Shown here: positions 2,644 to 22,016 of the stretch, in pieces
Layout: each line of letters begins with the position of its first letter
Numbering within the stretch: the stretch's first letter is position 1
From: Natrinema soli
Lineage (GTDB): Archaea > Halobacteriota > Halobacteria > Halobacteriales > Natrialbaceae
Reading direction: 5' to 3'
NCBI RefSeq assembly: GCF_028618695.1
Contig: NZ_JAQIVI010000521.1
Coordinates: 1 to 27,627, forward strand
DNA length: 27,627 bases
Notes under the pieces: model-generated
Databases searched by the model: none
What the model was told of the DNA's origin: nothing
Seen by the model: the letters and a program-made list of their open reading frames with translations, nothing else
Position numbers and translations under genes: made by a program

Positions 2644-2647
2644 AAAC

Positions 2648-4900: not shown

Positions 4901-4911
4901 CGTATCGATAA

Positions 4912-6376
4912 ATGAGTACTCGGCTATTCAGAGCTCTCTTTTGGGTGCTCGCAGAGCTATTGGAGTGTGCACACGTCATTCAACGCTTACGGCTGCGGGC
5001 CACGGCCGATCTCGCGTGGCCGCGCATCATCACCGGGTTAGCTCGGATGTCAAAGCAGACTGCCGACATCGCGATGGTTGGCCTCGTCCTCGGACTGCCG
5101 GCCATCGCGTGACTCACGCGTATTGGCAACTCGGCAATCGCGTTTCACTCGGGCTCTCTGGCGGTTCAATCAGCTTCATCTCCCAGCACTACGGGGCCGA
5201 CGACATCGAGCTGGCCAATAGGGCGATTACCCAGAGCTACTTGGTCGCGACGGTGCTATCGATGTCACTGGTCGTGCTCTTCCATTGGCAAGCGGAGTTC
5301 CTGATCGGGATGATGAGCGACGATCCGGCGGCGATCGAGTAGGTTAGCAGTACCCACTGGTCGTCGCGCCGGCGATCGTTTTCGAGTTTTACAACAAGGT
5401 CGCCAGCCGTATTTTCGACGGTGTTGGCGATACGTTCACGCCGATGGTGATCCGCGGTGGCGGTGCGGCAGTTAACATTGTGCTCAACGTGGTCTTGGTA
5501 TTCGGTTTCGGAATGGGTGTCGTCGGTGCCGCCATTGGCACCGCCTTCTCGATCGTGCTCATCACGGTCGGACTCGTCTGGGGACTCCTCGGAAAGCCGT
5601 ACTCGACAAGACGTCCGCTACCCGCTCAGCTTTCGCTTTCGAGACCATACGTCGATCCGCCACCGCTGCGATCGATCGTCTCCGTAAGCACGCCGATAAT
5701 GTTCCAGCAGCTCGCTCGAACCGCAGTTGCGTTCCCGCTGCTGGCTATCGCGGACGTCTCCGGTTCCGTTGCGGTTGCCGGCTACGAGATCGTCCGCCGA
5801 ACGCGTGACCAGATCAATAGCCTCTCGTGGGGTTCTCGATCGCCTCAAGCAGCCTCGTCGGGCGACACCTCAGCAGCGAGAAGCGAAGAATGTCGCCGCC
5901 GCATGCGGCGACCACGTCTTCCTTATCGCTGCTCACTTACGTCATTGCCGCTGTGTTTGTAATCGTCTTCGCGAGACAGATCGCGCGACTGTTCGTCACC
6001 GATCCAGCGGCCATAAATCTAGCTGCAACGTTCGTCGCGGTCACTGCCGTCGCGACGATCGGACTCGGCCTCGGCGAGGGGCCATCGGCGCGCTACGCGG
6101 CGCAAGAGATACACACTAGTCGTTTTACACTGCTCTTATCGATCTCTACGGGTTTGCGCTGCCGATCGCATATCTCGGTATCGTCACCCCGCTCGGCGTC
6201 ATGGTGTTGTATCTCTCGTAGTCGCAGAAATGTTCGTGCCCGCACTGATCACGCTCTATCGGTACTACACCGGTGCCTGGCACGAGGTAAGTCGATCGCT
6301 ACACGAGCGCTCGCAGAGCGCGATCGACTGTCGCTTCGGCATCGGATTCCGTTCGAGATATTGTCTATACCGGTAG
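4912..6376 (+). pseudogene. MATE family multidrug exporter, multiply frameshifted
   Basis: The pieces of one MATE-family sodium or proton:drug antiporter (normally ~480 residues) appear in order but in different frames. The N-terminus is at 4912 (DLAWPRIITGLARMSKQ, GLVLG). A second piece follows after a stop at 5110-5112 (YWQLGNRVSLGLSGGSISF, SQHYGADDIELANRAI) and ends at a stop at 5340-5342. A third frame runs from ~5348 (VAPAIVFEFYNKVASRIF, GGGAAVNIVLNVVLVFGFG, TPIMFQQLARTAVAFPLL). From ~5827 comes FSIASSSLVGRHL, then LLTYVIAAVFVIVFA, and the tail shifts again through GAIGALRGARDTH and ALPIAYLGIVTPLGVM to RYYTGAWHEVSRSLHERSQ. At least five frame changes or stops mean it cannot make a working protein. 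It reads as long-term decay, not sequencing error. Confidence 0.88.
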
Positions 6377-6458
6377 AGCACGAATATAACTACAAATATT
6401 AAACACTCTGATGGTTGAAATGGCCTGGATTTTTACTTACCGGAGTCGGAGTCGACGT

Positions 6459-7463
6459 ATGCCCCTCGAACTGTCGATGGCAATCGGGGATTACGACCGC
6501 GTTCGACCGCTTCAAACCGGCGAAGTAACACCCAATGGGATAGATCTTACGAGTGTTAACCGTCCTCCGGGAGAACTGTTCAAGCAAGTAGTTCGGGATC
6601 AACAGTTCGATATTACGGAGATGAGCCTTTCAACGTACACTCTCTGGGTTTCAAAAACCGACGTTCCATATGTTGGTATTCCCGTATTCCCGTCACGGCT
6701 CTTCAGACACTCTGCCATCTACGTCAACACGGAATCGGGTATCGACGAGCCGTCAGATCTCTATGGAAAATGCATCGGTGTGCTCCCGGAGTATCAGATC
6801 ACGGCTGCAACGATGGCCCGAGGGATGCTCGAAGAGGAATACGGCGTCTCTCCTGAGAATATGACGTGGTACGCCGCTCGAGAAGAAAAGATGCCGACCG
6901 ACTTACCGGCCGACGTAGATAAACACGTGATCAATCCGAACAGGGATCTCGAGTCGATGCTCGAGAGCGGCGAAATCGATGCGCTGCTGTCGACGCTGAT
7001 ACCGAACAGTCTTGGAAACGGTGTTGAACGACTCTTCAGTGACTTCAAACGGGTCGAAAAGGAGTACTACAATGAAACCGGTGTGTTCCCGATAATGCAC
7101 ACTATCGTCGTTCACGAAGATATCTACGAGCGTCATCCATGGGTCGTGAACTCGCTGTACGATGCGATGGAGCGAGCGAAGGAACTGGCAATCAGACGGC
7201 TGTACAATACAGATGCGCTACACGCAACGATACCGTGGCTCGTCGATCACGTAGAGGAAGCCCGTGCCGCACTCGGCGAGGACTTCTGGCCATATGGGTT
7301 CGAGCCGAACTACCACACGATCGATACGTTAACACGATACTCGTACGAACAGGGTCTCTCCGATCGAAGAGTCGAACCGGAAGAGCTGTTCGTAGACGAG
7401 TTACTGGATACCGGTTCCGAGACCCAAACTCGCGTGAAACCCGACGATGTCATCAATCCGTAA
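6459..7463 (+). CDS. 4,5-dihydroxyphthalate decarboxylase-like protein (periplasmic-binding-protein fold)
   Basis: 334 residues from the ATG at 6459. A TATA-like TTTTTACTT about 26 nt upstream supports this start over ATG 6411, which would add 16 basic residues. The sequence follows the Pht5/4,5-dihydroxyphthalate decarboxylase family closely: LELSMAIGDYDRVRPL at the N-terminus, FDITEMSLSTY near residue 50, then VGIPVFPSRLFRHSAIYVN, an acidic GIDEPSDLYGKCIGV segment and TWYAAREEK. Characterised members remove CO2 from 4,5-dihydroxyphthalate to give protocatechuate. The fold is that of an ABC solute receptor, but there is no signal peptide, so a cytoplasmic enzyme fits better than a receptor. 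It stands next to tctA (convergent), and TctABC-type systems often carry aromatic carboxylates. Exact substrate is inferred. Confidence 0.75.
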   Translation: MPLELSMAIGDYDRVRPLQTGEVTPNGIDLTSVNRPPGELFKQVVRDQQFDITEMSLSTYTLWVSKTDVPYVGIPVFPSRLFRHSAIYVNTESGIDEPSDLYGKCIGVLPEYQITAATMARGMLEEEYGVSPENMTWYAAREEKMPTDLPADVDKHVINPNRDLESMLESGEIDALLSTLIPNSLGNGVERLFSDFKRVEKEYYNETGVFPIMHTIVVHEDIYERHPWVVNSLYDAMERAKELAIRRLYNTDALHATIPWLVDHVEEARAALGEDFWPYGFEPNYHTIDTLTRYSYEQGLSDRRVEPEELFVDELLDTGSETQTRVKPDDVINP

Positions 7464-7528
7464 CGAAACGAGTCGTAGCCTGCAACATTGAAAACCCGAT
7501 TAGCAACAGATAGTCGATTAGCTCTCGA

Positions 7529-9058
7529 TCACGGTCCGACGATCGCTCGCCGCGACTGGTAAATCGAAACAGCGAGCATTAGGACCGTTATCAGAATGAG
7601 CGCGATTGAGAGCGGTTGCGTGAACAAGATCGCGTAGTCTCCCTGCGAGACCTGAAGCGAACGATGAAAGTTCTGTTCCGCGAGGGGACCGAGAATGAGC
7701 GCGACCACCACGGCGACTCTGGACATTCCGTATTTCATCATCAAGGCACCGATAACACCGAATCCGACTGCGAGGACGACGTCATTGATGTTACCTCGAA
7801 TCGCGAATGCACCCAAGAGCGAAATCATGACAACTATTGGCGCAACCGTGGTGATTCGGATCCGCGTGATCTTCGTCAGCGTGTTCGCGGTGAGCAAGCC
7901 GATTGTAGAGGTAAGGGCATTCGAGATCAACAGTGCGAATATGACGACGAATACGAGCTGAAGGTTTTCCTGGAACAAGAGCGGTCCCGGAGTGACGCCA
8001 TGAATAATAAACGCACCGAGGAGAACAGCAGTTGACGCCGAACCCGGAACACCCAGTCCCAGGGTCGGTATCATTGATCCACCGTCTTTGGAGTCGTTCG
8101 CAGCCTCGCTCGCAATCACGCCCTTGATGTTTCCTTCGCCGAAACTGGAGGACTCCGACGATCGCTGTTTCGCTGTCATATACGAGATGAAATTCGCGAC
8201 CGTTCCACCGGCACCCGGAATGATACCGATTATCCACCCGATAATCGAGCTCTGACCGACGAGCTTCCAGTTCGAGACGACTGAACGAGTTCCCTTCATA
8301 AGGCCTCCAGCGACTTTTGTATCGCCAGCGATCGACTGCTGCTCACCCATGAGTTTAATCATCTCAGCGATAGCGAACAATCCGATGATGAGCGGAATAA
8401 GTTGAATTCCGTCGAAGAGATACGTCGTACCGTACGTGAATCGCGCCGTTCCCGTAACGGGATTGAGGCCGTGGAACGCGAGCATCAGCCCGAAGGCACC
8501 GGCAATGAGATCCGTGAGGACCGATCCCCGCGTTGCAAGTGCGACCGTAGTCAGTCCGGCGATCGCGAGCCAGAACATCTCCGGGGAACCGAACGCTAGA
8601 GCAAGGGATCTGACGAACGGGATCGAAATCAACAGCAATGCTAATCCGAAGAACGCCCCGCTCGCTGAGGAAATGGCGCTCGCAGCGAGGGCTTCACCTC
8701 CCCTTCCCTGACGTGTCATGGGATAGCCGTCTAATAGCGTCGCTGCGTTGGGTGCGTCACCTGGTGTATTCAAGAGGATCGCCGTGATCGAACCCCCAAA
8801 TGCCGTCGCACCGAGCGTGCCCGACAGGATCATCACTGCAACGTTACCATCGAACTGAAACGTCACGGGGATCAAGAGGGCTAACGCGATAGGACCACCA
8901 AGCCCCGGGAGAATTCCAACTATCAGGCCTATCGCGACGGAGATCAATAGCAGAAGGAAATTGTAGGGGTCCGTGACGACGTCGAAAGCGATGAGCATCG
9001 CCTCCCACAAGTCACCTGTCTGCTGCAATACGATTGGCTCGAGAAGGAGTTCAGTCAT
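7529..9058 (-). CDS. tctA: Tripartite tricarboxylate transporter, large permease subunit TctA
   Basis: About 509 residues with ~12 membrane segments, the normal TctA length. The two family signatures are present: GILPGLGGPIALALLIPVTF near residue 50 with the following LLNTPGDAPNAATLLDGYP, and the internal repeat GIIPGAGGTVANFISY followed by GGSMIPTLGLGVPGSASTAV. TctA forms the main channel of the sodium-driven TTT carrier, which takes substrate from the receptor TctC. The start at 9056-9058 overlaps the tctB stop by the classic ATGA, so the pair is translationally coupled. An ATG three codons upstream is possible. The gene converges on the dihydroxyphthalate-decarboxylase-like gene with a 65-bp gap. 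Confidence 0.93.
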   Translation of the reverse strand: MTELLLEPIVLQQTGDLWEAMLIAFDVVTDPYNFLLLLISVAIGLIVGILPGLGGPIALALLIPVTFQFDGNVAVMILSGTLGATAFGGSITAILLNTPGDAPNAATLLDGYPMTRQGRGGEALAASAISSASGAFFGLALLLISIPFVRSLALAFGSPEMFWLAIAGLTTVALATRGSVLTDLIAGAFGLMLAFHGLNPVTGTARFTYGTTYLFDGIQLIPLIIGLFAIAEMIKLMGEQQSIAGDTKVAGGLMKGTRSVVSNWKLVGQSSIIGWIIGIIPGAGGTVANFISYMTAKQRSSESSSFGEGNIKGVIASEAANDSKDGGSMIPTLGLGVPGSASTAVLLGAFIIHGVTPGPLLFQENLQLVFVVIFALLISNALTSTIGLLTANTLTKITRIRITTVAPIVVMISLLGAFAIRGNINDVVLAVGFGVIGALMMKYGMSRVAVVVALILGPLAEQNFHRSLQVSQGDYAILFTQPLSIALILITVLMLAVSIYQSRRAIVGP

Positions 9059-9738
9059 CGCCACCACCCCCTCGGCGCTGCGAGGAGAACACTATTGAAG
9101 AGAGCTCCCTCCCAGAGCGGGAGGGAGAGAAACTCGACGAAGAAAATCTGCACGAACGCGAGCGAGAGTGTAGTGATTAGTGTCGCTCGAAGGAGGGACT
9201 GTTCGTAGGTGTAGACGAAGAGGAATAGGAACAACAGGAACGCGTTGAGAAATCCGAAGAAGTACACTACGGTCAGCAAGCTGACGACCCAGAGTACCAT
9301 TTTGAGCTCGCGTTGGACCCGTACCGTCGTCTCATCGCTCCCCTCGGCACCTTCATCACCAGCATCGGATAACGCTTCATCGGTAATACTATCGAAAATC
9401 CCGCTTCCCGAACCCGAATAGCGGGACGAAAACGTCAACACAAGGTAAAGGATGATCATCAGGATAAGCGGAACGCCGATCATGAACGGGAACAGTCGTG
9501 CATCGGACGAATAGGACCTAGCCTGGATAAGTAACCCGACCGTGTACACCAGCAGTACGACGAAAAACGCCGCCCTCCAGTACTTCGAAGAAACCCATGT
9601 AACGTATTTCGCGACCATATTGATCGGCTTCGCGATGGCGGAGACAAGCGTGAAATATATCGAATCGATCACTGACTTTATTTGGAAAAGTACGCTCCAA
9701 ACCATCGTCGAATAGTCGCTATAATCAACCATTGCCAT
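9055..9738 (-). CDS. tctB: Tripartite tricarboxylate transporter, small permease subunit TctB
   Basis: 227 residues from the ATG at 9738, preceded by a GGAGGA ribosome-binding sequence about 10 nt upstream; the longer ORF start at 9876 adds residues without family character. Four membrane segments are predicted: a pair around FFVVLLVYTVGLLIQA and FMIGVPLILMIILYLVLTF, and a pair around VLWVVSLLTVVYFFGFLNAF and TLITTLSLAFVQIFF. Between the pairs is a highly acidic soluble linker (ITDEALSDAGDEGAEGSDE), typical of halophilic surface exposure. Bacterial TctB is usually ~150 residues, so this copy is enlarged by its amphipathic N-terminus and the linker. Its upstream region is cut off from the rest of the locus by the IS1595-type element. 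Confidence 0.85.
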   Translation of the reverse strand: MAMVDYSDYSTMVWSVLFQIKSVIDSIYFTLVSAIAKPINMVAKYVTWVSSKYWRAAFFVVLLVYTVGLLIQARSYSSDARLFPFMIGVPLILMIILYLVLTFSSRYSGSGSGIFDSITDEALSDAGDEGAEGSDETTVRVQRELKMVLWVVSLLTVVYFFGFLNAFLLFLFLFVYTYEQSLLRATLITTLSLAFVQIFFVEFLSLPLWEGALFNSVLLAAPRGWWR

Positions 9739-9990
9739 ATGCCACCATCCTCCTCGACCGATATAAGACTTGCCAAAGTAATAATTATTTAGCATAGTTT
9801 GTGCGAAAATCCGACCTCTCCAAGAGCAGAATTCACAGTTACTTCCCGATATCCGAAGCCAAAGAATGCAGACCAATGACGATTAGACTCTTGATCATCA
9901 ATACCACTATTGAGATCAGTAAACAAAGACGCTCTTCTGTAGGAGATTGTTGATACTGCTCAGCTGTTGCTGTAGAATCGAAGAGAGCAA

Positions 9991-10012
9991 GGACACCGCG
10001 TCAGCGGTGTCC
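9991..10012 (+). other. Perfect hairpin just before the IS1595 transposase start
   Basis: GGACACCGC-GTCA-GCGGTGTCC is a 9-bp perfect stem with a 4-nt loop, ending 7 nt before the ATG at 10020. In a transcript running in from outside it would fold over the region just upstream of the start codon. Such structures in IS elements often limit transposase translation from read-through transcripts; that role is inferred. A second perfect stem, TTTCACAGC-TAC-GCTGTGAAA at 10885-10905, overlaps the stop codon at the other end. Confidence 0.5.
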
Positions 10013-10019
10013 GTTAGGC

Positions 10020-10903
10020 ATGATTCCGCTAGATGTGTTTGGATCGGAATCGGTCGCAGCGAACCTGCTCTAACAGATTCGCTGGCGTAACGGTGTTACT
10101 TGCCCTCGCTGCCGTTCTGACCTGTCGGTCAACAACGGCAGCTATGGGCACTTTCAGCGCTATCTCTGTAAGAATTGCGACCGCACGTTCAACGACAAGA
10201 CTGGCACGATCTTTGCCCATTCAAAAGTTGCATTCAGAAAGTGGCTGTTCTCGGTTTACGCGTTTCTCCGGTTTAACACGAGTCTTCGCCAACTTCAGCT
10301 AGATATCGACGTCCAGTACAAAACGATCTACCAGCGCGTCGAGCGCTTCACGAAGGCGCTCGACGCGCCTTCGCTCGATCTCGTCGGTCCCGTCAAAATC
10401 GACGAAGTCTATGTTTCTGCAGGGCTGAAAGGCCGCGAGCGCGACAAGAGTCGCGCTCGCGTGGCCTGTCCACACGTGGGCGAGGATCGTACGACCGGGA
10501 CAAACCGCCGGTGTTCACGATCGTCGATCGTGGCACCGGCGACCGATACGTGATCTCCGCGAAATCAGCCGACGAATCGATGATTCGGCTCCTACTCGCG
10601 AACCGCGAGAAGGTGCCACTGACCGTCTACACTGACGGATTTCGTGCCTACGATCCACTCAGCGAGGACGACGCATTCGACCGCGAATACGTCGTCCACA
10701 GCGACGGCGAATACGCTGACGAAAACGTACACGTCAACACCTGCAAGAGCCACGGATCGTTGCTGCGACCGTGGCTCTCGCCTCATCGAGGCATCTCAAA
10801 AGATAAACTCACACAGTATCTCCGAGCGTTCCAACTTCGACGAAAGTTACTGCGGAAACTAGGGAGAGAAGCGCTCAAACATGCTTTCACAGCTACGCTG
10901 TGA
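10020..10903 (+). pseudogene. IS1595 (ISXO2-like DDE) transposase with a nonsense codon and a frameshift
   Basis: The frame opens MIPLDVFGSESVAANLL, hits TAA at 10071-10073, and continues in the same frame as the zinc-ribbon N-terminus (CPRCRSDL ... CKNCDRTF) and helix-turn-helix (FNTSLRQLQLDIDVQYKTI). It reaches VKIDEVYV, the first catalytic Asp of the ISXO2 domain. Near 10446-10450 one base appears lost. The next frame resumes as SRSRGLSTRGRGSYDRDKPP, VYTDGFRAYDPL and NVHVNTCKSHGSLLRPWLSP, holding the remaining catalytic residues, and stops at 10901-10903. Apart from these two lesions the protein looks full length (~294 residues). The lesions make it inactive unless suppressed. Confidence 0.85.
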
Positions 10904-10929
10904 AATCAACAAAGTGCTACACAAGAGCG

Positions 10930-11372
10930 AACAAAGAATTTGGTTTTCCAGATAGGTAATGACCGAAACTCAGATTTTAAAACATTGTATTTAGTTAATA
11001 TGGTTTATAACTCTTCTGCGTCGAATGAACCAATCTTTTCTAAGGACCTAGCCAGTGATGGTTGCGTGAACTGCTTAACTCTATCATCGGTTGATTCGAT
11101 TCGGATAATCCAACAGTGGAATGAGGGTGTTGTAGAACAACTGTCCCACCTAAGAGCAGGTTGACTAGCTCAGGCTGCCCTGCTAGACAATTCTTCGGTG
11201 GAGTCGCTCTTCAATAAAGATCGATGAAGTGTATCCAATATCTCGATAGAAAGATCGAAGTTGGAGCACAAACAATCACCACAGCAATTCTACAGTATTC
11301 GCACCATTAGACTGGAGAAAGTAGACCCCAGTGTTAATAACTGTTATGTGGAGGGATACCAAATAATGTAGT
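10930..11372. other. AT-rich intergenic stretch with no recognisable gene
   Basis: After the IS target duplication there is a low-GC stretch to the alcohol dehydrogenase. A 54-74-codon frame ending at 11164 (inner ATG at 11000, preceded by TTTTAAAA) has no family resemblance and ordinary composition; it could be a relic of a regulator or chance. The dehydrogenase promoter probably lies at 11330-11370: GTTAATAAC ~36 nt before the ATG and GGAGGG about 18 nt before it. Confidence 0.4.
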
Positions 11373-12497
11373 ATGGAATCGACTGCTGCTGTGCTCGAAT
11401 CACCGACTGATGGCAATAATTTGTCAAAGGCCACACCTGCGGCCTTCAAGACGATCGAGATTGCTGATCCAACTGGCGAGGAGGTGCTTGTCGAAATCAC
11501 GGCAGCAAGTCTCTGTCACACCGATGTTGGAATTACTCGCGGCCAGCTTGAGGAATTATTCCCATTAGTAATGGGACATGAGGGCGCTGGCCGCGTGGCG
11601 GCCGTAGGCGAGGACGTCGAATCAGTTGACCCCGGCGATCAGGTGGTCCTCGGGCGGATCACCTGCGGCCGCTGTGAGTTCTGTCGCGAGGGGAACGGCC
11701 AACTCTGTTCCAAACGAACCGAGGCTCGTCGCAGCGGAACGCTCAGAACAGGCAACATCCGTTTCAGTAGGAACGGTGATCCGGTTCACCACTGTCACGG
11801 CGTGTCCTCGTTCAGCGAGTACACGCTCGTTACAGAAGAGGTCGCGATAGAGGTTGATGACAATCTCCCAGCGGAACAGGCGACGTTGCTGGGCTGTGGC
11901 GTCTTTACCGGGGCGGGTGCGGTCATGAACACCGCCGACATTGAAGCTGGATCGTCGGTCGTGGTGTTCGGTGCCGGCGGCGTCGGCCTCTCCGCAGTGC
12001 AAGGCGCCCGACTCCGCAGTGCAAGGGAGGTCATCGCTGTAGACATCGTTCAGGAGAAGCTCAAGATCGCCTCAGAGGTCGGCGCCACCCACACGATCAA
12101 CTCCTCCGAGGAGGACGTGGTGGATCGCGTCCGCGAGTTTACCGACGGCGGCGTGGATTACGCGTTCGAGGTCGTCGGGAATCCACACGTTACCGAACAG
12201 GCGATCGAGTGTCTCACTCCGACCGGCCAGGCAGTTCTGGTGGGCGTTCCACCGTTGGGGAAGAGGGATATCTCGCTCGATCTCTACGATATGGTAGTTT
12301 CTGAGAAGGGCGTCGTCGGCTCATTCAACGGCTCGTACAGCCTGCCGCTGGCCATCCCAAAGCTCGCGGATCTGGCCGTGAAGGAAGATCTCCAACTGGA
12401 GCCGCTAATCACCGACCGAAAACCCCTCACGCAACTCAATGAGGCGATGCATAAATTAGAGACAGGGGCCGGAGTTCGCCAAATCATAGAACCCTAG
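11373..12497 (+). CDS. Zinc-dependent alcohol dehydrogenase (class III / aryl-alcohol type MDR)
   Basis: 374 residues, full length for the medium-chain dehydrogenase/reductase family. Catalytic zinc ligands are C48 (ASLCHTD), H69 with E70 (MGHEGAG) and C175 (LLGCGVFTG). The structural zinc site is C98, C101, C104 and C112 (CGRCEFCREGNGQLC). The nucleotide-binding fold follows with GAGGVG at ~200-205 and an acidic residue after IAVD, pointing to NAD over NADP. Members oxidise primary or aryl alcohols to aldehydes. Its partner could be the aldehyde dehydrogenase now broken at 18159. It is transcribed convergently with the aldolase cluster and divergently from tctBA across the IS1595 element. 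The alcohol substrate is not readable. Confidence 0.9.
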   Translation: MESTAAVLESPTDGNNLSKATPAAFKTIEIADPTGEEVLVEITAASLCHTDVGITRGQLEELFPLVMGHEGAGRVAAVGEDVESVDPGDQVVLGRITCGRCEFCREGNGQLCSKRTEARRSGTLRTGNIRFSRNGDPVHHCHGVSSFSEYTLVTEEVAIEVDDNLPAEQATLLGCGVFTGAGAVMNTADIEAGSSVVVFGAGGVGLSAVQGARLRSAREVIAVDIVQEKLKIASEVGATHTINSSEEDVVDRVREFTDGGVDYAFEVVGNPHVTEQAIECLTPTGQAVLVGVPPLGKRDISLDLYDMVVSEKGVVGSFNGSYSLPLAIPKLADLAVKEDLQLEPLITDRKPLTQLNEAMHKLETGAGVRQIIEP

Positions 12498-12561
12498 CGA
12501 TCCCTCGAGAGTATTGTTTCGGATCGGAAAACGAGAACCGTTGACTGGGCGACCCTCGCGA

Positions 12562-12663
12562 CTAGTAGAGTTCCCGATCATGGATCGGTTCTAGATCGGC
12601 GAGGATGACCTCGTTCTCCAGCAATGTTCCGCAGCCCGGACAGTAGTATTTTCGGAACCCCAT
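12562..12663 (-). CDS. 33-residue zinc-knuckle protein resembling the tail of acetone carboxylase gamma subunit
   Basis: ATG at 12663 gives a 33-residue protein with one CPGCG knuckle (residues 8-12, KYYCPGCGTLLENEV) followed by an acidic tail ending PIHDRELY. The CPGCGTLLE-type sequence resembles the C-terminal zinc-binding end of acetone/acetophenone carboxylase gamma subunits, which are normally 70-170 residues. A stop codon lies in frame shortly upstream, so it is free-standing as seen. It starts 52 nt after the aldolase stop on the same strand and may be the last gene of that operon. It is either a true micro-subunit of a carboxylating or decarboxylating enzyme or the tail of a truncated gene. 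Confidence 0.5.
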   Translation of the reverse strand: MGFRKYYCPGCGTLLENEVILADLEPIHDRELY

Positions 12664-12715
12664 CGTAATTATTGGTGACTATTTTTAGTTGAGTTCGCCT
12701 CAGGTGTCGGATAAG

Positions 12716-13435
12716 TCACATCGAAGGATCGTTCGGTAATCGATCACAGAGATACGACCACATTCGGTCGATCGAGATATCGGCCAAGATCACGTCGTCG
12801 ACGGTCGCCTCGAGAGTGTCTTGCGGCCCATCGAAATACGACGGCGTTCCGAGTTGCTCGGCCTGTATCTGATATCGAGCGTTCATTACCAAGTACACAG
12901 TTCCGAGAACCGCTTCTTTGAGGGATTCGCCGACGACGTTTGCTCCGTGATTCTCGAGCAATTGTGCCCGTTTATCACCGAGCGCCGCAGCCATTCGATC
13001 GCCTTCAGCCTCAGTGACGATGAGCGGGCCCATTTCCGTATCGTAATCAGAGAAGGACGGGACGCCTTCGTGGAAGAGCGCAGCGAGATGAAAGACAGGT
13101 TTGATCTCCGTATCGGTTGCAACGAACGGCATCATATCCGGTGCGTGATGGTGAACGACTGCATCGACATCGTCTCGGTTGCGGTAGATCGCTCGGTGAA
13201 TCACCGTCTCGAGGTATGGTTGTTTGTCCTTGTTCTCGACGATAGTTCCGTCATACGTCATCGTCATGATGTCGTCTCGCGTAACGAGTTTCGGGCTCAG
13301 CGATCGCGAGATAAGCAACTTGTCGCCGTCAGGGTGTCGAACGCTTACGTGACCGAAACCCTCGATGATACCTTCGTTGGCGAGAACGCGATTGGCCGTT
13401 ACGAGCTGGTCTTTCAATTGGGTAGTATTCTGCAC
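12716..13435 (-). CDS. Class II aldolase/adducin family protein (aldolase or hydroxy-aromatic decarboxylase type)
   Basis: 239 residues, full-length single-domain class II aldolase/adducin. The metal and catalytic set matches the L-fuculose-phosphate aldolase pattern: E76 (YLETVIH), H95 and H97 in VVHHHAPD, and H163 in LLENHGANVVG, with the same E+19/E+21 spacing. The N-terminal GFGHVSVRHP replaces the usual phosphate-loop GNxS, arguing against a sugar-phosphate substrate. Members of this family include 3,4-dihydroxyphthalate decarboxylase and methylthioribulose-phosphate dehydratase. Given the neighbours (Rieske ferredoxin, amidohydrolase decarboxylase, TctC), decarboxylation or retro-aldol cleavage of a hydroxylated acid is the likeliest role. 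It is on the same strand as the Rieske gene, 267 bp downstream. Confidence 0.82.
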   Translation of the reverse strand: MQNTTQLKDQLVTANRVLANEGIIEGFGHVSVRHPDGDKLLISRSLSPKLVTRDDIMTMTYDGTIVENKDKQPYLETVIHRAIYRNRDDVDAVVHHHAPDMMPFVATDTEIKPVFHLAALFHEGVPSFSDYDTEMGPLIVTEAEGDRMAAALGDKRAQLLENHGANVVGESLKEAVLGTVYLVMNARYQIQAEQLGTPSYFDGPQDTLEATVDDVILADISIDRMWSYLCDRLPNDPSM

Positions 13436-13702
13436 GATACTCTATTGATAGCCATCACCTATCAAGATTTGGATGAGCGAATACTGTAATGGACCTATCG
13501 ACCGTATAGTCTGCCAATCGACCTGCCGAGTTATTCGCGACAAACCGTAAACAGAGGATCGCAGAGAAGACTATTGTGAGAGCTGTCCAACGGACCATGT
13601 GTCGAGAAGTCTATCAGTAGGCGAGCCGACGGTGCTAACTGGTGTCGGCGAGAATGAGTGGCACGCGATCGGTGGCTGAAGATTCCGAGAGATCGAAACC
13701 GG

Positions 13703-14056
13703 TTACACTTCGACCTTGATGTCGTCTCCGTCGACGGTAACGTCGAAGGTACGCATCTTCTTCCCGGTCGCCGGGTTCTCGCCGGTTTCGAGATCGAATT
13801 TCCAGTCATGGCCGGGACATGTCATCCAGCATTCCTCCTGGTTTATCACCCCCGGACCGTCGGTGATACAGTGTTCCTCGTTGATCCGTTCTTGAGTGGC
13901 CGTATGGAGTCGCTGTGCTCGATGAACGCAGACGTTCTGGATTCCGTAGAATTCGCCGTCAATGTTCACGATCGCGATCTCAATGCCGCCGACTTCCACA
14001 CCGAGGACGTCTCCTTCGAGGATTTCGTCGACGGATGCAACAGTGTGTTTCGTCAT
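13703..14056 (-). CDS. Rieske [2Fe-2S] ferredoxin with a long cluster-loop spacer
   Basis: 117 residues starting MTKHTVASVDEILEG at the ATG at 14054-14056, 32 nt after the amidohydrolase stop; the longer frame is antisense and intergenic read-through. Cluster ligands are C43-x-H45 (NVCVHRA) and C80-x-x-H83 (TCPGHDW). Between H45 and C80 there are 34 residues instead of the usual 15-17, including two extra cysteines (C63 and C76). The C-terminal strand KFDLETGENPATGKKM is standard. Rieske ferredoxins feed electrons to ring-hydroxylating oxygenases; no oxygenase alpha subunit is in the window. Likely co-transcribed with the amidohydrolase. A relic of a related protein lies at 22367-22468. Confidence 0.88.
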   Translation of the reverse strand: MTKHTVASVDEILEGDVLGVEVGGIEIAIVNIDGEFYGIQNVCVHRAQRLHTATQERINEEHCITDGPGVINQEECWMTCPGHDWKFDLETGENPATGKKMRTFDVTVDGDDIKVEV

Positions 14057-14088
14057 TGATAGCTGGTATTGGTGGTAGCTTGGTTGCG

Positions 14089-15234
14089 TTACAGCCGGTA
14101 GACTTCTTCGGCGTTCCCGCGGAACATGCTTTCCCTCAGATCGTCGCCGATGGCCGGATTGTCGAAGATCCAGGTCGGCGGATCGTTCGTACTGTGGGGC
14201 CAGTCCGTCGCAAACATCATCGTCTTTTCGGCCTGCTCGATCTCCAGCAACCACTCGTAATGGCGGGGATTGTCCGGGAGGCAGACTGGCTGCGTCGAGA
14301 AGTAAAAGTGATCGAACAGGTACTCGCTCGGCATTCGATCGAGGTACTTCTTGCCCTGATCGTACATCCGTTCGGCGAGTTGGATGTCTTCCGGCGTGTG
14401 CTGATAGAACTCGTCCAGTCGATACGCGACGAACGGAAGCCAATGATATCCGCCTTCCTGATAAACGACGTTAAGTTCGGGGTATTTATCGAATACTCCC
14501 GTCACGATCATGTTTACCGTGTTCATCATCGTGTGCATACAGGGAGCGAAACCGATCGCCTCGATCCACGTCCGAATCGAGCCGCCCATCGGCGTCGATG
14601 GATCGGGGTACGAGGCGACGTCCAGATGCATCGTCAACGGAAGGTCGAGATCGATCAGTTTCTCGAAGACTTGATCGTACTCCGGATCACCCAGCCGCCA
14701 GTATTTCCCAAACCACGCGTAGGCGCCGGCAACGTCTTTCTCGTCCCCAATTCGCTCTAGTTCTTCGACCGTCGCCTCGGGGTTCCAGAGCGGGATCATC
14801 ATCTGGCAACGAACGTTCTCGTGGACGTTCGTGACGTTGTCGAGAACGTAGTCGTTGTATGCCCGACAGACCTCCTCTTTCATTCGCGGATAGTTCACCT
14901 GAGGGAGACTGTTCATACCAGGAGTGACCAGCGGTACGTCAGTCCCCATCTGCTCCATCATCTCGAGAATGTCCTCCCCGTCTTTTGCGGCGCCGTTCGA
15001 GTCAACACCGACGCCGCCACCCTCATTCCCCCAAGTGGGAAGCCAGTCGATCGCTTCGAACTGGTAGTGACCCAACGGACGATCTAGTTTGTCGACGATT
15101 CGATCGTCCATGTACGGGTAGAGATCTTCCAGCATCGAGAGGTCCAGATGCACGTCAGTATCGATAATGAACTCATCGTGGACCTCGTCGGGGATACCGG
15201 TGTTTTCGTTCGGTTGGAATTTACGAACCGACAT
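14089..15234 (-). CDS. Amidohydrolase family protein of the ACMSD / 5-carboxyvanillate decarboxylase type
   Basis: 381 residues from the ATG at 15234 (MSVRKFQPNE), chosen because a TATA-like TGTTATAAGA lies about 31 nt upstream; a longer frame adds 38 basic residues. Fold signatures of the amidohydrolase-2 (COG2159) decarboxylases are visible: DTDVHLDL near residue 26 (D-x-H in place of the common H-x-H), LPLTMHLDVASYP in the middle, VVYQEGGYHWLPFVAYR, and FATDWPHSTND containing the metal-binding Asp. Members are Zn/Mn decarboxylases or hydratases acting on aromatic or muconate-type acids. First gene of a minus-strand group (amidohydrolase, Rieske), divergent from tctC across a 500-bp region with three palindromes. 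Substrate is inferred only. Confidence 0.87.
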   Translation of the reverse strand: MSVRKFQPNENTGIPDEVHDEFIIDTDVHLDLSMLEDLYPYMDDRIVDKLDRPLGHYQFEAIDWLPTWGNEGGGVGVDSNGAAKDGEDILEMMEQMGTDVPLVTPGMNSLPQVNYPRMKEEVCRAYNDYVLDNVTNVHENVRCQMMIPLWNPEATVEELERIGDEKDVAGAYAWFGKYWRLGDPEYDQVFEKLIDLDLPLTMHLDVASYPDPSTPMGGSIRTWIEAIGFAPCMHTMMNTVNMIVTGVFDKYPELNVVYQEGGYHWLPFVAYRLDEFYQHTPEDIQLAERMYDQGKKYLDRMPSEYLFDHFYFSTQPVCLPDNPRHYEWLLEIEQAEKTMMFATDWPHSTNDPPTWIFDNPAIGDDLRESMFRGNAEEVYRL

Positions 15235-15260
15235 AGCAGTTGTGAATGTGGACCATGTGG

Positions 15261-15270
15261 TCTTATAACA
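15261..15270 (-). promoter_or_regulatory. TATA-like box for the amidohydrolase operon
   Basis: TGTTATAAGA on the minus strand is centred ~31 nt before the amidohydrolase ATG, the spacing expected for a haloarchaeal promoter with a leader of only a few nucleotides. Confidence 0.5.
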
Positions 15271-15327
15271 TTTGGTTCTTTTCCTGATAGTAGAATGCCT
15301 CACGATACAAACAGAGGCACGATCACC

Positions 15328-15344
15328 ATTTCGCATTACCGAAT
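15328..15344. promoter_or_regulatory. Operator-like palindrome copy 1 (one mismatch)
   Basis: ATTTCG-CATTA-CCGAAT is a 6-5-6 inverted repeat, one base off the ATTCGG-N5-CCGAAT consensus of copies 2 and 3. It lies 94 nt upstream of the amidohydrolase start, in the divergent intergenic region. Confidence 0.45.
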
Positions 15345-15435
15345 GCAAATGCTGGCCGATGTTCGAATACCGGGTTGCTCTGATAGTCCTAACTCAGAAT
15401 GATTAGAAAACAATCATATAGGATGTGAGCAGATG

Positions 15436-15452
15436 ATTCGGTATGGCCGAAT
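15436..15452. promoter_or_regulatory. Operator-like palindrome copy 2
   Basis: ATTCGG-TATGG-CCGAAT is a perfect 6-5-6 inverted repeat, mid-way between the two divergent promoters and followed by a very A/T-rich segment. Its centre is 108 nt from copy 1 and 152 nt from copy 3. Confidence 0.6.
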
Positions 15453-15587
15453 GGCAATTTATATTATATTATTACAAAAGTATTGGTGTAAAACACGCGC
15501 CACCTCCTTGTGAGATATTCCCTACCGGGAGGCAATTGGGCCAATTTAAACGGCCGGGTATAAAGAAACCCGTCTTTTGAGGGAGTC

Positions 15588-15604
15588 ATTCGGTAATTCC
15601 GAAT
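15588..15604. promoter_or_regulatory. Operator-like palindrome copy 3
   Basis: ATTCGG-TAATT-CCGAAT is a perfect 6-5-6 inverted repeat identical in its arms to copy 2, about 110-120 nt upstream of the likely tctC TATA box (TTTTTTATG around 15708-15715). I found no other copy of both arms at this spacing in the window. Confidence 0.6.
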
Positions 15605-15741
15605 AGTACTGTAGAGGATTTTCTGAACATTGGTGCTGATGCACACTAACACCCTATCATATAGTGATATTTTCAATATTTATTCTCAGTGCTTATCTTC
15701 ATGGAAAGGTTTTTTATGTTCCTCGCAATATGACCACCAGT

Positions 15742-16812
15742 ATGGGTAATGATAGAACCGTTAATCGTCGGTCAGTACTTCAGCGATCAGTTGCACTCGT
15801 GGGTTCCGCGTCCGTTATTGGGCTAGCCGGGTGTTTAGGCGGAAACGGTGGTGACGTCGATCCGGACGACTATCCCAACGGAGAGGTTGAAATGATCGTA
15901 CCGTTCTCCACCGGTGGTGGATTCGACGAGTATACCCGACTTTCTGAACCGTACTGGGAAGAAGAATTAGGTGGCGATTTCGTCACCAGAAACATCGAAG
16001 GCGGCGGCGGAGCAACCGGCATCACGCAAGTGTACAACGCCGAACCGAACGGGCAAACATTCAGCATATACGACAGCTTCCAGGGAACGTCGCAGATGAT
16101 TGGACGGGACGTCCCCTTCGACATCACAGAGATGAGTTACATCGGTTCAATAACTAATACGCCCGGTGCGTTCGTCGTTACTGAAGACGCTGATATAGAC
16201 GACTGGGACGACTTCATCAACAGAATCGATGAATTCAACTTCGCAACGCAGGGCCAAGGTTCGTACGGACACACCGCAGTAGGAATACTGAGTCTGTATA
16301 TCGACGAGATAGACGGAACCGACATTAATTACGTTCATTTCAATGGGACCGGTGAAGTGATCGCAGGATTAGAGCGAGGAGAAGCCAACGTATTCTATAT
16401 TTCGACGATCACGTCGGGCGTCACCGTAGTCAAGTCCTTGGAAAACGCATCACTCTTTACGGTGTTCGAGACCGAGGACGAAATTGGAGGGTTCCTCGAG
16501 GAGGAAGGCGTCGAAACTGACTACTATTCGCCGGAATTAGACGTCGAGAACATCGAGGAATTCAACGAGTCCGCCTACGACCGCCGCTTCTTCTTGGGAC
16601 CACCGGACGTTCCCGAGGAGATCCTGAAGATCCAACGAGACGGCTTCCAGTCGTTCATTAATGACGACGGATTTCAGGAAGAAATGCGAAATAGCGGTCG
16701 ACCGATTATCAATCCTGGTGGACCAGACGCAGTCAAAGAATACGTGAATAACGCGTTCGAGACGCTTGATCAAGATGATCACAGGGAAATCCTCGAAAGC
16801 TATATGAACTGA
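15742..16812 (+). CDS. tctC: Tripartite tricarboxylate transporter solute receptor TctC (Bug family), Tat lipoprotein
   Basis: Starts MGNDRTVNRRSVLQRS. The twin-arginine motif (NRRSVLQ), hydrophobic core (VALVGSASVIGLAG) and lipobox cysteine (LAGCLGG) mark a Tat-exported, lipid-anchored receptor as usual in haloarchaea. The mature part follows the Bug/TctC pattern: NGEVEMIVPFSTGGGFDEYTR near residue 50, GGGGATGITQVYNAEPNG, NFATQGQGSYGHTAVGIL and the C-terminal GPPDVPEEILKIQRDGFQ. It binds a carboxylate outside the cell and hands it to TctAB. I chose ATG 15742 because a TTTTTTATG box lies ~30 nt upstream; ATG 15730 is possible. Unusually it is ~6 kb from tctBA, with catabolic genes and an IS between. 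An IS630 follows 110 bp downstream. Confidence 0.93.
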   Translation: MGNDRTVNRRSVLQRSVALVGSASVIGLAGCLGGNGGDVDPDDYPNGEVEMIVPFSTGGGFDEYTRLSEPYWEEELGGDFVTRNIEGGGGATGITQVYNAEPNGQTFSIYDSFQGTSQMIGRDVPFDITEMSYIGSITNTPGAFVVTEDADIDDWDDFINRIDEFNFATQGQGSYGHTAVGILSLYIDEIDGTDINYVHFNGTGEVIAGLERGEANVFYISTITSGVTVVKSLENASLFTVFETEDEIGGFLEEEGVETDYYSPELDVENIEEFNESAYDRRFFLGPPDVPEEILKIQRDGFQSFINDDGFQEEMRNSGRPIINPGGPDAVKEYVNNAFETLDQDDHREILESYMN

Positions 16813-16922
16813 TCACCCCGCACGAACGATCTCTCCTGTCCTCGATCGCGCCAGTCGGGTCCTCGTTTCACACTAGCGGTTGAGTTCCGTCAGTGCTTCA
16901 TCCAGCGGCAGATAATCAGATA

Positions 16923-18109
16923 TATTTGAACTTATAGTGATTAGCAAATCTTATTGAGAAATCCACTGAGGTGATTGTCAATCCACGATGCAGCGGAACT
17001 CAGTTTCTCGGTCAGTTGGTCGAACAGTTCGTCAAGGAGTCTCCGGTACTCGTCTTCGCCGTTAACAATCAACGGCGAAGACTCCCACTTGAGACTCTTC
17101 CAGACAGGTTCGATTGGGTTGAGGTCCGGGGAACCAACCGGAAGGAACACCAGATCAATCCCGAGTTCATGAGCACGCTTGCGCGTGTGCTTGCAGACGT
17201 GTGACGAAAAGTTATCCAACACGAGCAGAATCCGCTTGCCGGGATTCTGCTCGCGGATCTCCTCGAAACACCCGCAGATTTGTTCTTTCTCCTGGTTCGG
17301 TGGGAACGACAGCACGCTCTCTCCGTTGAGCGCATAGAACCCGGCCGCTGGTGTATCGATTTTCACCAGCGGCCGGGTGATATGTGGGTCATCGACCGTG
17401 TACAGTCGCTGAGAGTTGTCCCATGGTTGTGGATGCGAGATATCGAAAAATCCCACCACAGTCCCGCCATCAGTACAGATGTCCTCATCGGTGCGCCACT
17501 CCTCTTCGTCGTCATCGTCGTCACTGTCGCGCTTATTGTGTGGCTGGTCGTGAGCATCCTCGTCGAACGCGTACTCGACGCGTTCGTCGAGGATCTCTTC
17601 GGCGTTGGCGGGTCGATCAGGCCGTTTTGTCCGAGGAATGGCGTAGGAAAGGCCGAGGTTGGATAGGAACGTTGGGAGGTAGTGTGAATGATATTCGACA
17701 TCGAACTCCTCGTCGAGAAGGTGCTGAATCTCTTGTTTTTTCCACGGTTGTCTCTCACGCAGTCGATCGATGAATTCGTCTTGTTGGTCTTCGTCGAGCT
17801 TCGGGGGCCGACCGCCCCCGAAGTTCGGAGTGAGTTTGCCGAGGCCTCCTTCGTTCCAGCGGTTGACCCAGTTGGTGGCGGTGCCCTCAGATTTCCCAAC
17901 GTCATCGGCAGCCTCCTTCAGCGTGGCACCCTTGTACAGCCGTTTGATGAACACGAGGCGTTCGAATTCCTTCTGATCGTCTGCCTCGCCGAGCAGACGA
18001 TCCAGATCCTCTTCACTCAGGTGTCGCACAATTTTCTTCTCTCGGCCAGTCACTACACTAAAGAGATACTTCTGCTCAATAATTTTCCCGAATCACTATA
18101 GTTCAAATA
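16923..18109 (-). mobile_element. IS630-type insertion sequence with TA target duplication
   Basis: Both ends carry the same ~20-bp inverted repeat: left TATTTGAACTTATAGTGATT, right (reverse complement) TATTTGAACTATAGTGATT, differing by one inserted base. Each end is bordered by TA, the duplication made by IS630/Tc1-mariner elements. It landed between tctC and the aldehyde dehydrogenase and does not split either. The transposase frame is intact, so it may be active. Confidence 0.85.
16941..18053 (-). CDS. IS630 family transposase
   Basis: 370 residues. The N-terminal helix-turn-helix region (FIKRLYKGATLKEAADDVG ... GTATNWVNRWNEGG) is followed by a GGRPPKL linker and a second winged-helix-like part (WKKQEIQHLLDEEFDVEY). 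The DDE domain has Asp in VVGFFDISHPQPW, Asp in LLVLDNFSSHVCKH, and the final acidic residue in GSPDLNPIEPVWKSLKWE, all in IS630 order. A strongly acidic insert (DSDDDDDEEEW) before the first catalytic Asp is unusual. Several plus-strand ORFs across this span are shadows. Confidence 0.92.
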   Translation of the reverse strand: MTGREKKIVRHLSEEDLDRLLGEADDQKEFERLVFIKRLYKGATLKEAADDVGKSEGTATNWVNRWNEGGLGKLTPNFGGGRPPKLDEDQQDEFIDRLRERQPWKKQEIQHLLDEEFDVEYHSHYLPTFLSNLGLSYAIPRTKRPDRPANAEEILDERVEYAFDEDAHDQPHNKRDSDDDDDEEEWRTDEDICTDGGTVVGFFDISHPQPWDNSQRLYTVDDPHITRPLVKIDTPAAGFYALNGESVLSFPPNQEKEQICGCFEEIREQNPGKRILLVLDNFSSHVCKHTRKRAHELGIDLVFLPVGSPDLNPIEPVWKSLKWESSPLIVNGEDEYRRLLDELFDQLTEKLSSAASWIDNHLSGFLNKIC

Positions 18110-18158
18110 TATGTGACCAAAGATATATTATGAGGTGATTCCGTACTACACTGGTACC

Positions 18159-18692
18159 ATGGCACAAATCACGCCTTCGTTCGAGGAGCCGAAACTACTA
18201 ATCGATGGGGAACTCGTCGAAAGTAGCTCCGGGGAACGGTTCGAAACGATCAACCCTGCTACAGGAGAGCAACTCACAACGATTCCTCGCGGGACCGAAC
18301 AGGACATTGATCGAGCAGTGAGTGCAGCGTCTGCTGCGCAGGAAGAGTGGTACTGGGAGATGACGCCGAAAGAACGCGGCGAAGCGCTCTTCGAGTTCGC
18401 CGAGTTACTCCGCGAGAACGGGGACCGATTGGGCGCGATCGACGCGGCGGATAGCGGAAACCCGTATGGGTAAATGAAGAGTGATGCGGCGATGGCTGCC
18501 GAGATCATCGAGTACTTTGCTGGGGTCGCAACGGAGATCAAAGGCGATACGATCCCGGTTTCGAACGACAATCTGAATTATACACTAGAACAGCCGTACG
18601 GGGTCGTGGGTCGGATCGTCGCCTACAACCATCCGCTGTTGTTCAGGGCGAGTAAAATTGCCGCACCGCTGATCGCTGGAAACGGTGTCGTC
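18159..18692 (+). pseudogene. Aldehyde dehydrogenase, N-terminal third only: nonsense codon and IS5 truncation
   Basis: ATG at 18159 (MAQITPSFEEPKLLIDGELV) gives a clear NAD(P)-dependent aldehyde dehydrogenase N-terminus: ETINPATGEQLTTIPRG, AAQEEWYWEMTPKERGEAL, LGAIDAADSGNPYG. A TAA at 18471-18473 interrupts, and the same frame continues as MKSDAAMAAEIIEYFAG, QPYGVVGRIVAYNHP and APLIAGNGVVG, up to the IS5 end at 18693. The remaining ~310 residues with the catalytic Cys and Glu are absent on the far side of the IS. The gene would have oxidised the aldehyde made by the neighbouring alcohol dehydrogenase (inference). Two independent lesions show that this step is lost here. Confidence 0.92.
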
Positions 18693-19633
18693 GGCTCTGT
18701 TGAATCGCTGTAAGGCGGTGGATTTCACTGTTTGACGGCACGTTTGATGTTGTAGACGACACACATCAGAGAAATTTCACGGAACTCTCGATACCAGCTA
18801 CGCGCTCGCACGGCGTAGCCGAGCGAGCGCTTGACGGCTGAGTTGACGGTTTCGGCCATTGACCGCTGAGCGTACCGATCTTCATCAATGCGGGCGTTGT
18901 GTGCGTGATCGTACGGCGCGAAGATCCGGTGCTTGATCAGCGGGCGAATGTCGAGTTCACGGAGTCGTTCGCGGAGTTGTTGCTTGTCATAGCCCTTGTC
19001 AGCAGCCAGTGACTGCAGATCGCCCGCCGGAACGCGGGCGATCTGCTCACAAAGATCTGCGTCACTGCCTTCTAACGTCGTCGAACAGTGAAGGTCGAGT
19101 ACAGCCTGCGTTGCTGTATCGACGAGCTTTGTGACTTTGAGCGTCTGGACGCGATAATTCGTTCGCTGGCAGTAGTGGCGGCTCACATGATCTCGCTCGT
19201 AGAATGTTGCGTCGATAGCAGCGTGATCGGATGGATCGTGTAGCTGCGCCGACTGGCGCAGCAACACTCGACAGACGCTCATGCTGATCCGGTCGAACGC
19301 CTTACACAACGTGGATGGCGAAGGGAGATCGGCCGCGTTGAGGCCGATCTCCCCGGTTATTTGTGGCATCTCCTTAAGCAGGTCAATCGTCATTCGGTAG
19401 GACGTATCGAGGTAAATCCGCAGACAATGCAGGGAAACGAAGGCATAGTCGGCGAACCCGCCGCCACCTTCCGGGGCGGCGGATTCGTCTCCATCGCCAG
19501 TAACGTTTTGAGCAATCGGCACAACTGCCTCAATGAAGCGGGAGATTTGGGTCATGAACAACTGAAGTCTCCCGCTTCAAGACCTTCGATTTAGCGAACC
19601 ATTCCGCCGCCGTCTAGTGATTCAACACAGCCG
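18693..19633 (-). mobile_element. Second IS5-type insertion sequence, without target duplication
   Basis: Ends GGCTCTGTTGAATCGCTG (left) and GGCTGTGTTGAATCACTA (reverse complement of right), similarity continuing through the GGCGG stretch inward, define a ~941-bp element related to the one at 2648 but diverged. The flanks (GTGTCGTC before, GAGCAATC after) show no direct repeat, and the aldehyde dehydrogenase does not resume on the right. This fits a deletion or recombination between two copies that removed the DNA originally next to it. Confidence 0.85.
18725..19561 (-). CDS. IS5-type transposase (second lineage)
   Basis: 278 residues, uninterrupted. DDE residues are visible in HAAIDATFYERDH, LAADKGYDKQQL and MAETVNSAVKRSLG; the tail SWYREFREISLMCVVYNI matches the first copy. 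The C-terminal half is strongly alike in the two copies (PLIKHRIFAPYDHAHNARID against PLIKYRVFAPYDHAHNARIE), while the N-terminal ~100 residues have diverged widely. Start is ATG 19561 or the ATG two codons on. Confidence 0.92.
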   Translation of the reverse strand: MFMTQISRFIEAVVPIAQNVTGDGDESAAPEGGGGFADYAFVSLHCLRIYLDTSYRMTIDLLKEMPQITGEIGLNAADLPSPSTLCKAFDRISMSVCRVLLRQSAQLHDPSDHAAIDATFYERDHVSRHYCQRTNYRVQTLKVTKLVDTATQAVLDLHCSTTLEGSDADLCEQIARVPAGDLQSLAADKGYDKQQLRERLRELDIRPLIKHRIFAPYDHAHNARIDEDRYAQRSMAETVNSAVKRSLGYAVRARSWYREFREISLMCVVYNIKRAVKQ

Positions 19634-19730
19634 AGCAATCACACCTACTTCTGCAGTTTATTTACGAACTTTGTTGTGATCTCTTGAATAGGAAGCAACA
19701 ATTATACTGCTACGAGAGTATAAGACGAGT

Positions 19731-21993: not shown

Positions 21994-22016
21994 GGGAGTC
22001 CGGTACAATTGTCCGG

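What the first reader, a model, noticed from the sequence alone, without database searches (positions are those of the whole stretch)
6459..18692. Haloarchaeal aromatic/organic-acid catabolic island: decarboxylases, Rieske ferredoxin and a TctABC importer together
Within 12 kb lie a 4,5-dihydroxyphthalate-decarboxylase-like protein, an ACMSD-type amidohydrolase, a class II aldolase/decarboxylase-type protein, a Rieske ferredoxin, a Zn alcohol dehydrogenase, a (broken) aldehyde dehydrogenase, TctA/B and TctC. In bacteria, TctABC systems, Pht5-type decarboxylases and Rieske ferredoxins recur in phthalate-type degradation. This combination in an archaeon, with no oxygenase large subunit, may be an undescribed pathway for a carboxylated aromatic or hydroxy acid. 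The role is inferred from family and context.
Basis: partly seen in the sequence, partly recalled or inferred. Interest (0 to 1): 0.75.

Follow-up and report, generated by a model that had tools for sequence, protein, structure and literature searches.

The report
Haloarchaeal oxygenase cluster misread as decarboxylase
A salt-loving archaeon carries a recurring gene set that probably imports and breaks down a carboxylated compound, and the gene read as a simple decarboxylase looks more like a relative of unusual two-metal oxygenases paired with its own electron donor.

The parts
14089..15234 (-). AibH2-like amidohydrolase-fold protein (ARO candidate), 381 aa; ligands D27 H29 H203 E260 D344 H347; Thr349 at the AibH2 Asp342 place
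13703..14056 (-). Rieske [2Fe-2S] ferredoxin, 117 aa, 32 bp downstream of the ARO candidate; proposed electron donor
   Evidence: PF00355 1.7e-13; gap; same neighbour after 33 of 33 related genes
12716..13435 (-). Class II aldolase/adducin-family protein, probable carboxyl-removing enzyme
   Evidence: PF00596 4.7e-32; best solved relative 2z7b Mlr6791 1.6e-33; relatives of 55% or more identity in 3 of 391 genomes, all in the same cluster
6459..7463 (+). Pht5-like protein (4,5-dihydroxyphthalate decarboxylase family), no signal peptide seen
   Evidence: PDB 9jp7 1e-70; N-terminus; Pfam only weakly, as binding-protein families
7529..9067 (-). TctA, large membrane subunit of a tripartite tricarboxylate transporter
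   Evidence: PF01970 1.2e-128
9055..9876 (-). TctB, small membrane subunit
   Evidence: PF07331 3.8e-09
15664..16812 (+). TctC, solute-binding protein; twin-arginine stretch and LAGC motif; real start probably a later in-frame Met
   Evidence: PF03401 2.9e-08; N-terminus
11373..12497 (+). Zn-dependent alcohol dehydrogenase; not part of the shared core
   Evidence: PF00107 7.5e-32; no match in L001
18135..18713 (+). Aldehyde dehydrogenase remnant, in-frame stop, truncated at an IS5-type element
   Evidence: PF00171 1.4e-17 on the first piece
9929..10930 (.). IS1595-type element, transposase frame broken
16916..18116 (.). IS630-family element with inverted ends
   Evidence: NF033545 3e-84; ends
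18691..19634 (.). IS5-family element with inverted ends, at the cut end of the ALDH remnant
   Evidence: NF033579 2e-70; ends
4872..6402 (+). MatE-type exporter gene split over frames; a MatE gene also lies by the core in L001
20209..21693 (-). SSF symporter, 76% identical to the one beside the ARO of Haloarcula sp. JP-L23
   Evidence: PF00474 5.4e-39
21697..22008 (-). Small protein next to the SSF symporter, 53% over 70 residues to its counterpart in Haloarcula sp. JP-L23; no Pfam match
1..636 (+). C-terminal part of an FAD/Fe-S oxidoreductase, 73% identical to one in the same Haloarcula neighbourhood; runs off the window edge
1040..2431 (+). Na/sulfate-dicarboxylate-type symporter, 51% to one in the same Haloarcula neighbourhood
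   Evidence: PF00939 1.3e-26

Best explanation
The island encodes uptake and first breakdown steps of a carboxylated, probably (hetero)aromatic compound. TctC binds it outside the cell and TctAB imports it (inferred from family). The amidohydrolase-fold protein is an AibH2-like monooxygenase, probably with a dinuclear Fe/Fe or Mn/Fe site, fed electrons by the small Rieske ferredoxin encoded directly downstream; a reductase, not seen in the cluster, would feed the ferredoxin (fold, six ligand positions and gene pairing shown; metals and catalysis inferred). By analogy with known AROs it attacks a C(sp3)-H bond such as a ring methyl, O-methyl or N-methyl (inferred). The Pht5-like and class II aldolase-type proteins then remove carboxyl groups (inferred). 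The window copy is interrupted and partly eroded by insertion sequences (shown).
For: Sequence and fold rank ARO and AibH1H2 entries above decarboxylases. Six AibH2 ligands align. A Rieske gene directly follows 33 of 33 related genes, also in loci where no RO alpha was hit. Seven-gene core together in 3 of the 27 genomes that have a related ARO, in differing orders; close aldolase relatives in exactly those 3 of 391 genomes. Aromatic context; TTT importers known for terephthalate and isophthalate (passages).
Against: Thr, not an acidic residue, at the AibH2 Asp342 place in the window and in 33 of 33 matches; Hibi et al. say that residue is conserved only in binuclear enzymes, and AibH1, which has the other six residues and lacks it, is a mononuclear zinc protein. 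Pht5 relatives show no significant genome-level overlap with AROs (p 0.12), and in G071 two lie by ABC-transporter genes. RO alpha genes exist elsewhere in G001 and G289 and inside the G098 cluster. The Rieske protein matches dioxygenase-ferredoxin models weakly (51 bits against a cut-off of 113). No reductase and no ring-cleavage gene were found in the window. No substrate is shown.
Confidence: 0.5

Rival explanations
1. The amidohydrolase is a non-redox or mononuclear (AibH1-like or decarboxylase-like) protein, and the Rieske ferredoxin serves a conventional ring-hydroxylating dioxygenase encoded elsewhere.
For: No acidic residue at the AibH2 Asp342 place, as in mononuclear AibH1. RO alpha genes exist in G001, G289 and G098, one of them in the G098 cluster. 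Rieske protein weakly HcaC-like.
Against: Rieske gene directly after 33 of 33 related genes, while RO alpha was hit in few of those loci. AibH2 scores better than AibH1 (6.1e-26 against 2.9e-20). No second amidohydrolase gene in the window to serve as catalytic partner. In AibH2, D342A still takes up metals. Asp-x-His, not the His-x-His of ACMSD, at the N-terminus.
Confidence: 0.2
2. Same oxygenase module, but for a branched aliphatic acid: methyl hydroxylation, oxidation to a malonate-type acid by ADH and ALDH, then decarboxylation, as in the aib operon.
For: Known ARO reactions are on C(sp3)-H bonds. Window has Zn-ADH and an ALDH remnant; G098 has an ALDH. An Amdase-family gene (PF17645) lies by several haloarchaeal AROs.
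Against: ADH and ALDH have no match in L001; only a distant ALDH hit (33%) lies farther out in G001 (L082). Pht5-like protein and the aromatic genes in G098 and G289 point to aromatics.
Confidence: 0.2
3. Chance gathering of unrelated genes by insertion sequences.
For: Several transposase regions and an integrase in the window; GC falls from 0.65 to about 0.5; broken MatE and ALDH genes.
Against: The same seven genes lie together in three other genomes in other orders, at moderate identity for most.
Confidence: 0.07

Closest known systems
AibH1H2-AibG-AibF, 2-aminoisobutyrate monooxygenase of Rhodococcus wratislaviensis
   Different: One amidohydrolase gene instead of two; no AibF-like reductase seen; Thr for Asp342; other neighbours; about 24% identity.
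SfbO and the other candidate AROs (8SM6-8SM9; two-metal structures)
   Different: 22-29% identity; natural substrates unknown there too; the aligned 8SM6, 8SM7 and 8SM9 sequences are acidic at the Asp342 place, the window is not.
ACMSD and gamma-resorcylate-type decarboxylases
   Different: Lower sequence and fold scores; ACMSD has His-x-His zinc ligands, the window has Asp-x-His.
Bacterial phthalate pathways with Pht5-type or PhtC-type decarboxylases and TTT importers
   Same: Pht5-like protein (9jp7, 1e-70), class II aldolase-type protein, TTT importer; a Microbacterium sediminis plasmid has Pht5-like and two class II aldolase genes by an RO.
   Different: No RO alpha subunit and no dihydrodiol dehydrogenase recognised in the window; an ARO candidate instead.
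Mlr6791 (2z7b), recalled as a pyridine-dicarboxylate decarboxylase of vitamin B6 breakdown
   Same: Best solved relative of the aldolase-type protein (1.6e-33); H-x-H and a later His align.
   Different: Substrate of the window protein unknown; NF053537 (dihydroxyphthalate decarboxylase) scores 78 bits against a cut-off of 200.

Membership tests
AibH2-like AROs (criterion of PMC10401708) | PF04909 protein with all six AibH2 ligand residues | tested here: met
   Caveat: AibH1, mononuclear, also has these six, so the criterion alone does not prove two metals.
AibH2-like AROs (criterion of PMC10401708) | At least 24% identity to AibH2 | tested here: inconclusive
   Structural alignment gives 24%; Foldseek 22-24%: at the border.
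AROs (sign of two metals, PMC7782822) | Acidic residue at the AibH2 Asp342 place | tested here: not met
   Thr in the window and in 33 of 33 matches. So the two-metal claim is lowered to 'works like'.
AROs (rule of PMC10811679) | Small Rieske gene within three coding regions | tested here: met
   Next gene, 32 bp away.
AROs | Dinuclear cofactor and O2-dependent C-H oxidation | not testable with these tools
   Needs purified protein.
ACMSD-type decarboxylases | His-x-His, His, Asp zinc ligands | tested here: not met
   Asp27-x-His29 instead of His-x-His.
Tripartite tricarboxylate transporter | TctA, TctB and TctC all present | tested here: met
   All over the Pfam cut-offs.
Pht5-type 4,5-dihydroxyphthalate decarboxylase | Full-length similarity to a solved member | tested here: met
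   9jp7, 1e-70, residues 16-333 of 350. The enzyme name of 9jp7 is the depositors'.
Pht5-type 4,5-dihydroxyphthalate decarboxylase | Activity on 4,5-dihydroxyphthalate | not testable with these tools
   Needs an assay; catalytic residues were not examined.
PhtC equivalog NF053537 | Score over the curated cut-off | tested here: not met
   78.2 bits against 200.
Bacterial phthalate dioxygenase pathway | RO alpha subunit in the cluster | tested here: not met
   Window: none among ORFs scanned and no tblastn hit. It is met in the related G098 cluster.

The most novel reading that the evidence does not exclude
Haloarchaea have a Thr-type clade of amidohydrolase-fold, Rieske-fed oxygenases that serve as the entry oxygenase for carboxylated (possibly methylated or methoxylated) aromatics, taking the place that a Rieske dioxygenase has in bacterial phthalate-type pathways, with a metal site that works without the acidic second-shell residue of AibH2.
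Probability: 0.27. Interest if true: 0.8.

Novelty: new variant of a known kind. Interest (0 to 1): 0.55.

Why it matters
AROs are a young oxygenase class with few known substrates; Powell et al. note that neighbourhoods gave few clues to function. A haloarchaeal cluster with an importer and two decarboxylase-like proteins, found in four arrangements, narrows the substrate to something carboxylated and probably aromatic, and makes that testable. The Thr in place of Asp in 33 of 33 matches is a natural test of what that residue does, and of whether these proteins hold two metals at all. It also warns that an amidohydrolase beside a small Rieske gene should not be called a decarboxylase without a look at its ligands.

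Tried and rejected
ACMSD or gamma-resorcylate-type decarboxylase for 14089-15234: disfavoured on ligands and ranking. Own-genome search for an RO alpha subunit: impossible, no genome is held; G001, G289 and G098 were searched instead and each has one or two. Zn-ADH and ALDH as core steps: weakened, no match in L001, though an ALDH lies in the G098 cluster. Pht5 as a marker of ARO genomes: overlap not significant. Plasmid megablast with 6000-19600: 65 records, of which 20 were listed; listed places cover at most 11% of the query and their annotated features are mainly transposases; no record covers 80%. Shared-neighbour clustering with my own ORF caller was incomplete, since antisense ORFs displaced real genes in GC-rich loci (ARO recovered in 24 of 33), so it is not used for counts. 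Literature: searches found no paper on this cluster; besides the ARO papers cited, the listings named nothing on haloarchaeal AROs. Subscription papers and preprints are not held.

LigM/DesA-like genes and ARO genomes overlap more than expected (9 of 22, expected 1.5), but kinship was not controlled: a lead only. Limits of the genome counts: genomes were a sample of a larger group, at most four candidates per genome were scored, and three fetched loci were cut short by contig ends, so counts are lower bounds. G289:C15 (424,210 bases) has the contig length given for Halobellus captivus. Shared contig lengths between ARO and aldolase hits are suggestive only; one (2,463) may be chance.
Full report
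What is there. Between 6459 and 18713 lie a Pht5-like protein, TctA, TctB, a broken IS1595-type element, a Zn-ADH, a class II aldolase-family protein, a Rieske ferredoxin, an Amidohydro_2 protein, TctC, an IS630 element and an ALDH remnant ending at an IS5 element. The Pht5-like protein shows no signal peptide to the eye; TctC has a twin-arginine stretch and an LAGC motif. GC falls from 0.65 in the first kilobase to 0.47-0.56 between 6001 and 19000. The ALDH gene has an in-frame stop and aligns only to residues 34-197 of a 509-aa ALDH from G098.

A variant, and the main doubt. Where AibH2 has Asp342 the window has Thr349. So do 33 of 33 haloarchaeal matches and one truncated extra copy, while 7 of 7 more distant ARO-like sequences have Asp (two rhizobial genes, two haloarchaeal plasmid genes, three database proteins; one of them, from L012, has Tyr for the first ligand His in my alignment); a quick tree separates the two groups. 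Among 60 database hits: Thr 49, Ala 4, Ser 3, Asp 3, Asn 1. The matches were chosen by similarity to the window protein, so this describes its clade, not every haloarchaeal ARO. Against my reading: Hibi et al. state that the acidic residue is conserved only in binuclear enzymes, and AibH1, a mononuclear zinc protein thought noncatalytic, keeps the other six residues and lacks it. For it: D342A of AibH2 takes up the full set of metals, with diminished activity; the window protein scores better with AibH2 than with AibH1; and I recognised no second amidohydrolase gene in the window that could be a catalytic partner. Two metals are therefore likely, not shown.

Pairing with Rieske. Of 391 genomes in the class of G001, whose locus L001 is titled Halobellus inordinatus, 27 have a match at 1e-50 or better, 33 matches in all. 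Regions around all 33 were fetched as 32 loci. A C-x-H...C-x2-H frame follows the gene on the same strand in 32 of 32 loci, and the second match in L062 has its own Rieske gene. The pair was also seen in the six closest haloarchaeal plasmid hits (four are the same records as four of the 27 genomes) and in the two rhizobial hits that I opened. Powell et al. report 90% co-occurrence for AibH2-like proteins and name haloarchaea in the legend of their tree (section 7 read).

The core cluster. Against L001 the window proteins have these identities: ARO 87, Rieske 83, class II aldolase 75, TctA 65, MatE piece 53, Pht5-like 45, TctC 41, TctB 34; ADH and ALDH have no match there; a distant ALDH hit (33%) lies farther out in the same genome (L082). 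The set of seven lies together in G001 (L060), G289 (L061, L080) and G098 (L058), 3 of 27 ARO genomes. The four loci, window included, have four different gene orders. Class II aldolase relatives of 55% or more occur in exactly those three genomes (6 of 391 at 1e-30 or better). Pht5-like relatives occur in 18 of 391, 3 of them with the ARO (p 0.12), so Pht5 alone is no marker; in G071 two of them lie near ABC-transporter genes. The G098 cluster has an ARO of another branch (about 40% identity): the module is kept while the ARO branch changes.

Clues to substrate. G098 carries in the same stretch RO alpha and beta, an HcaB-like dehydrogenase, an extradiol dioxygenase, an HpaI-like aldolase and an ALDH (best NCBIfam matches all below their cut-offs). 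G289 has three LigM/DesA-like genes in or beside the cluster (below cut-offs; one compared with the PDB, LigM 2.5e-61), and such genes near its two other ARO loci (L056, L066). LigM/DesA-like genes occur in 22 of 391 genomes, 9 of these among the 27 (expected 1.5), kinship not controlled. The aldolase-type protein's best solved relative is Mlr6791 (its function is recalled, not from a call). TTT importers are known for terephthalate and isophthalate (passages). A Microbacterium sediminis plasmid has a similar set with a true RO. The window also holds a symporter 76% identical to the one beside the ARO of Haloarcula sp. JP-L23, and part of an FAD/Fe-S protein 73% identical to another gene of that neighbourhood. 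These point to a carboxylated, probably aromatic substrate; none proves it.

Counter-evidence on the ferredoxin. It matches dioxygenase-ferredoxin models, though under their cut-offs (51 bits against 113), and RO alpha genes exist in G001 (1), G289 (1) and G098 (2, one in the cluster). It could serve those as well. The invariable place after the ARO gene argues that the ARO is its main partner.

Papers. PMC10811679: parts 1 and 2 of 3 read. PMC10401708: passages and section 7. PMC7782822, PMC6362003 and PMC13040137: passages. Others: search listings only.

Verdict. The gene list holds and the island is a recurring module, but the central enzyme was misread: it is more likely the oxygenase than a decarboxylase. 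New variant of a known kind; interest 0.55.

Noticed in passing
L062 (G098:C33), 1-17057: Three ARO-Rieske pairs on one contig of 23,610 bases, one ARO truncated.
   Followed up: partly
L083 (G071), 10343-18514: Two Pht5-like genes near ABC-transporter genes and an ornithine-cyclodeaminase-family gene, in a genome without a related ARO: the Pht5 family may have other roles in haloarchaea.
   Followed up: partly
L003, L005, L006, L007 and L071-L077: An Amdase-family (PF17645) gene, annotated Asp/Glu racemase, often with a Gate or SSF permease, lies close to several haloarchaeal ARO-Rieske pairs.
   Followed up: partly
L061, L080, L056, L066 (G289): LigM/DesA-like GcvT-fold genes lie near all three ARO loci of this genome; 22 of 391 genomes have such genes, often several.
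   Followed up: partly
L009 (Sinorhizobium meliloti pSymA), 7998-10934: ARO-like and Rieske genes directly before a betaine-aldehyde dehydrogenase gene, hinting at a methylated-amine substrate there.
   Followed up: no
L011 (Halobaculum halophilum plasmid), 3544-8264: Two ARO-Rieske pairs about 2 kb apart, one annotated amidohydrolase being only a short piece.
   Followed up: no
window 2680-3510, 23482-24545, 25650-26804: A further DDE transposase, an IS630-type transposase split over two frames and a phage-integrase-family gene: the flanks look mobile.
   Followed up: no
L048-L079: An IclR-type regulator gene was hit in 18 of 32 ARO loci with one IclR query; none was hit in the window.
   Followed up: partly
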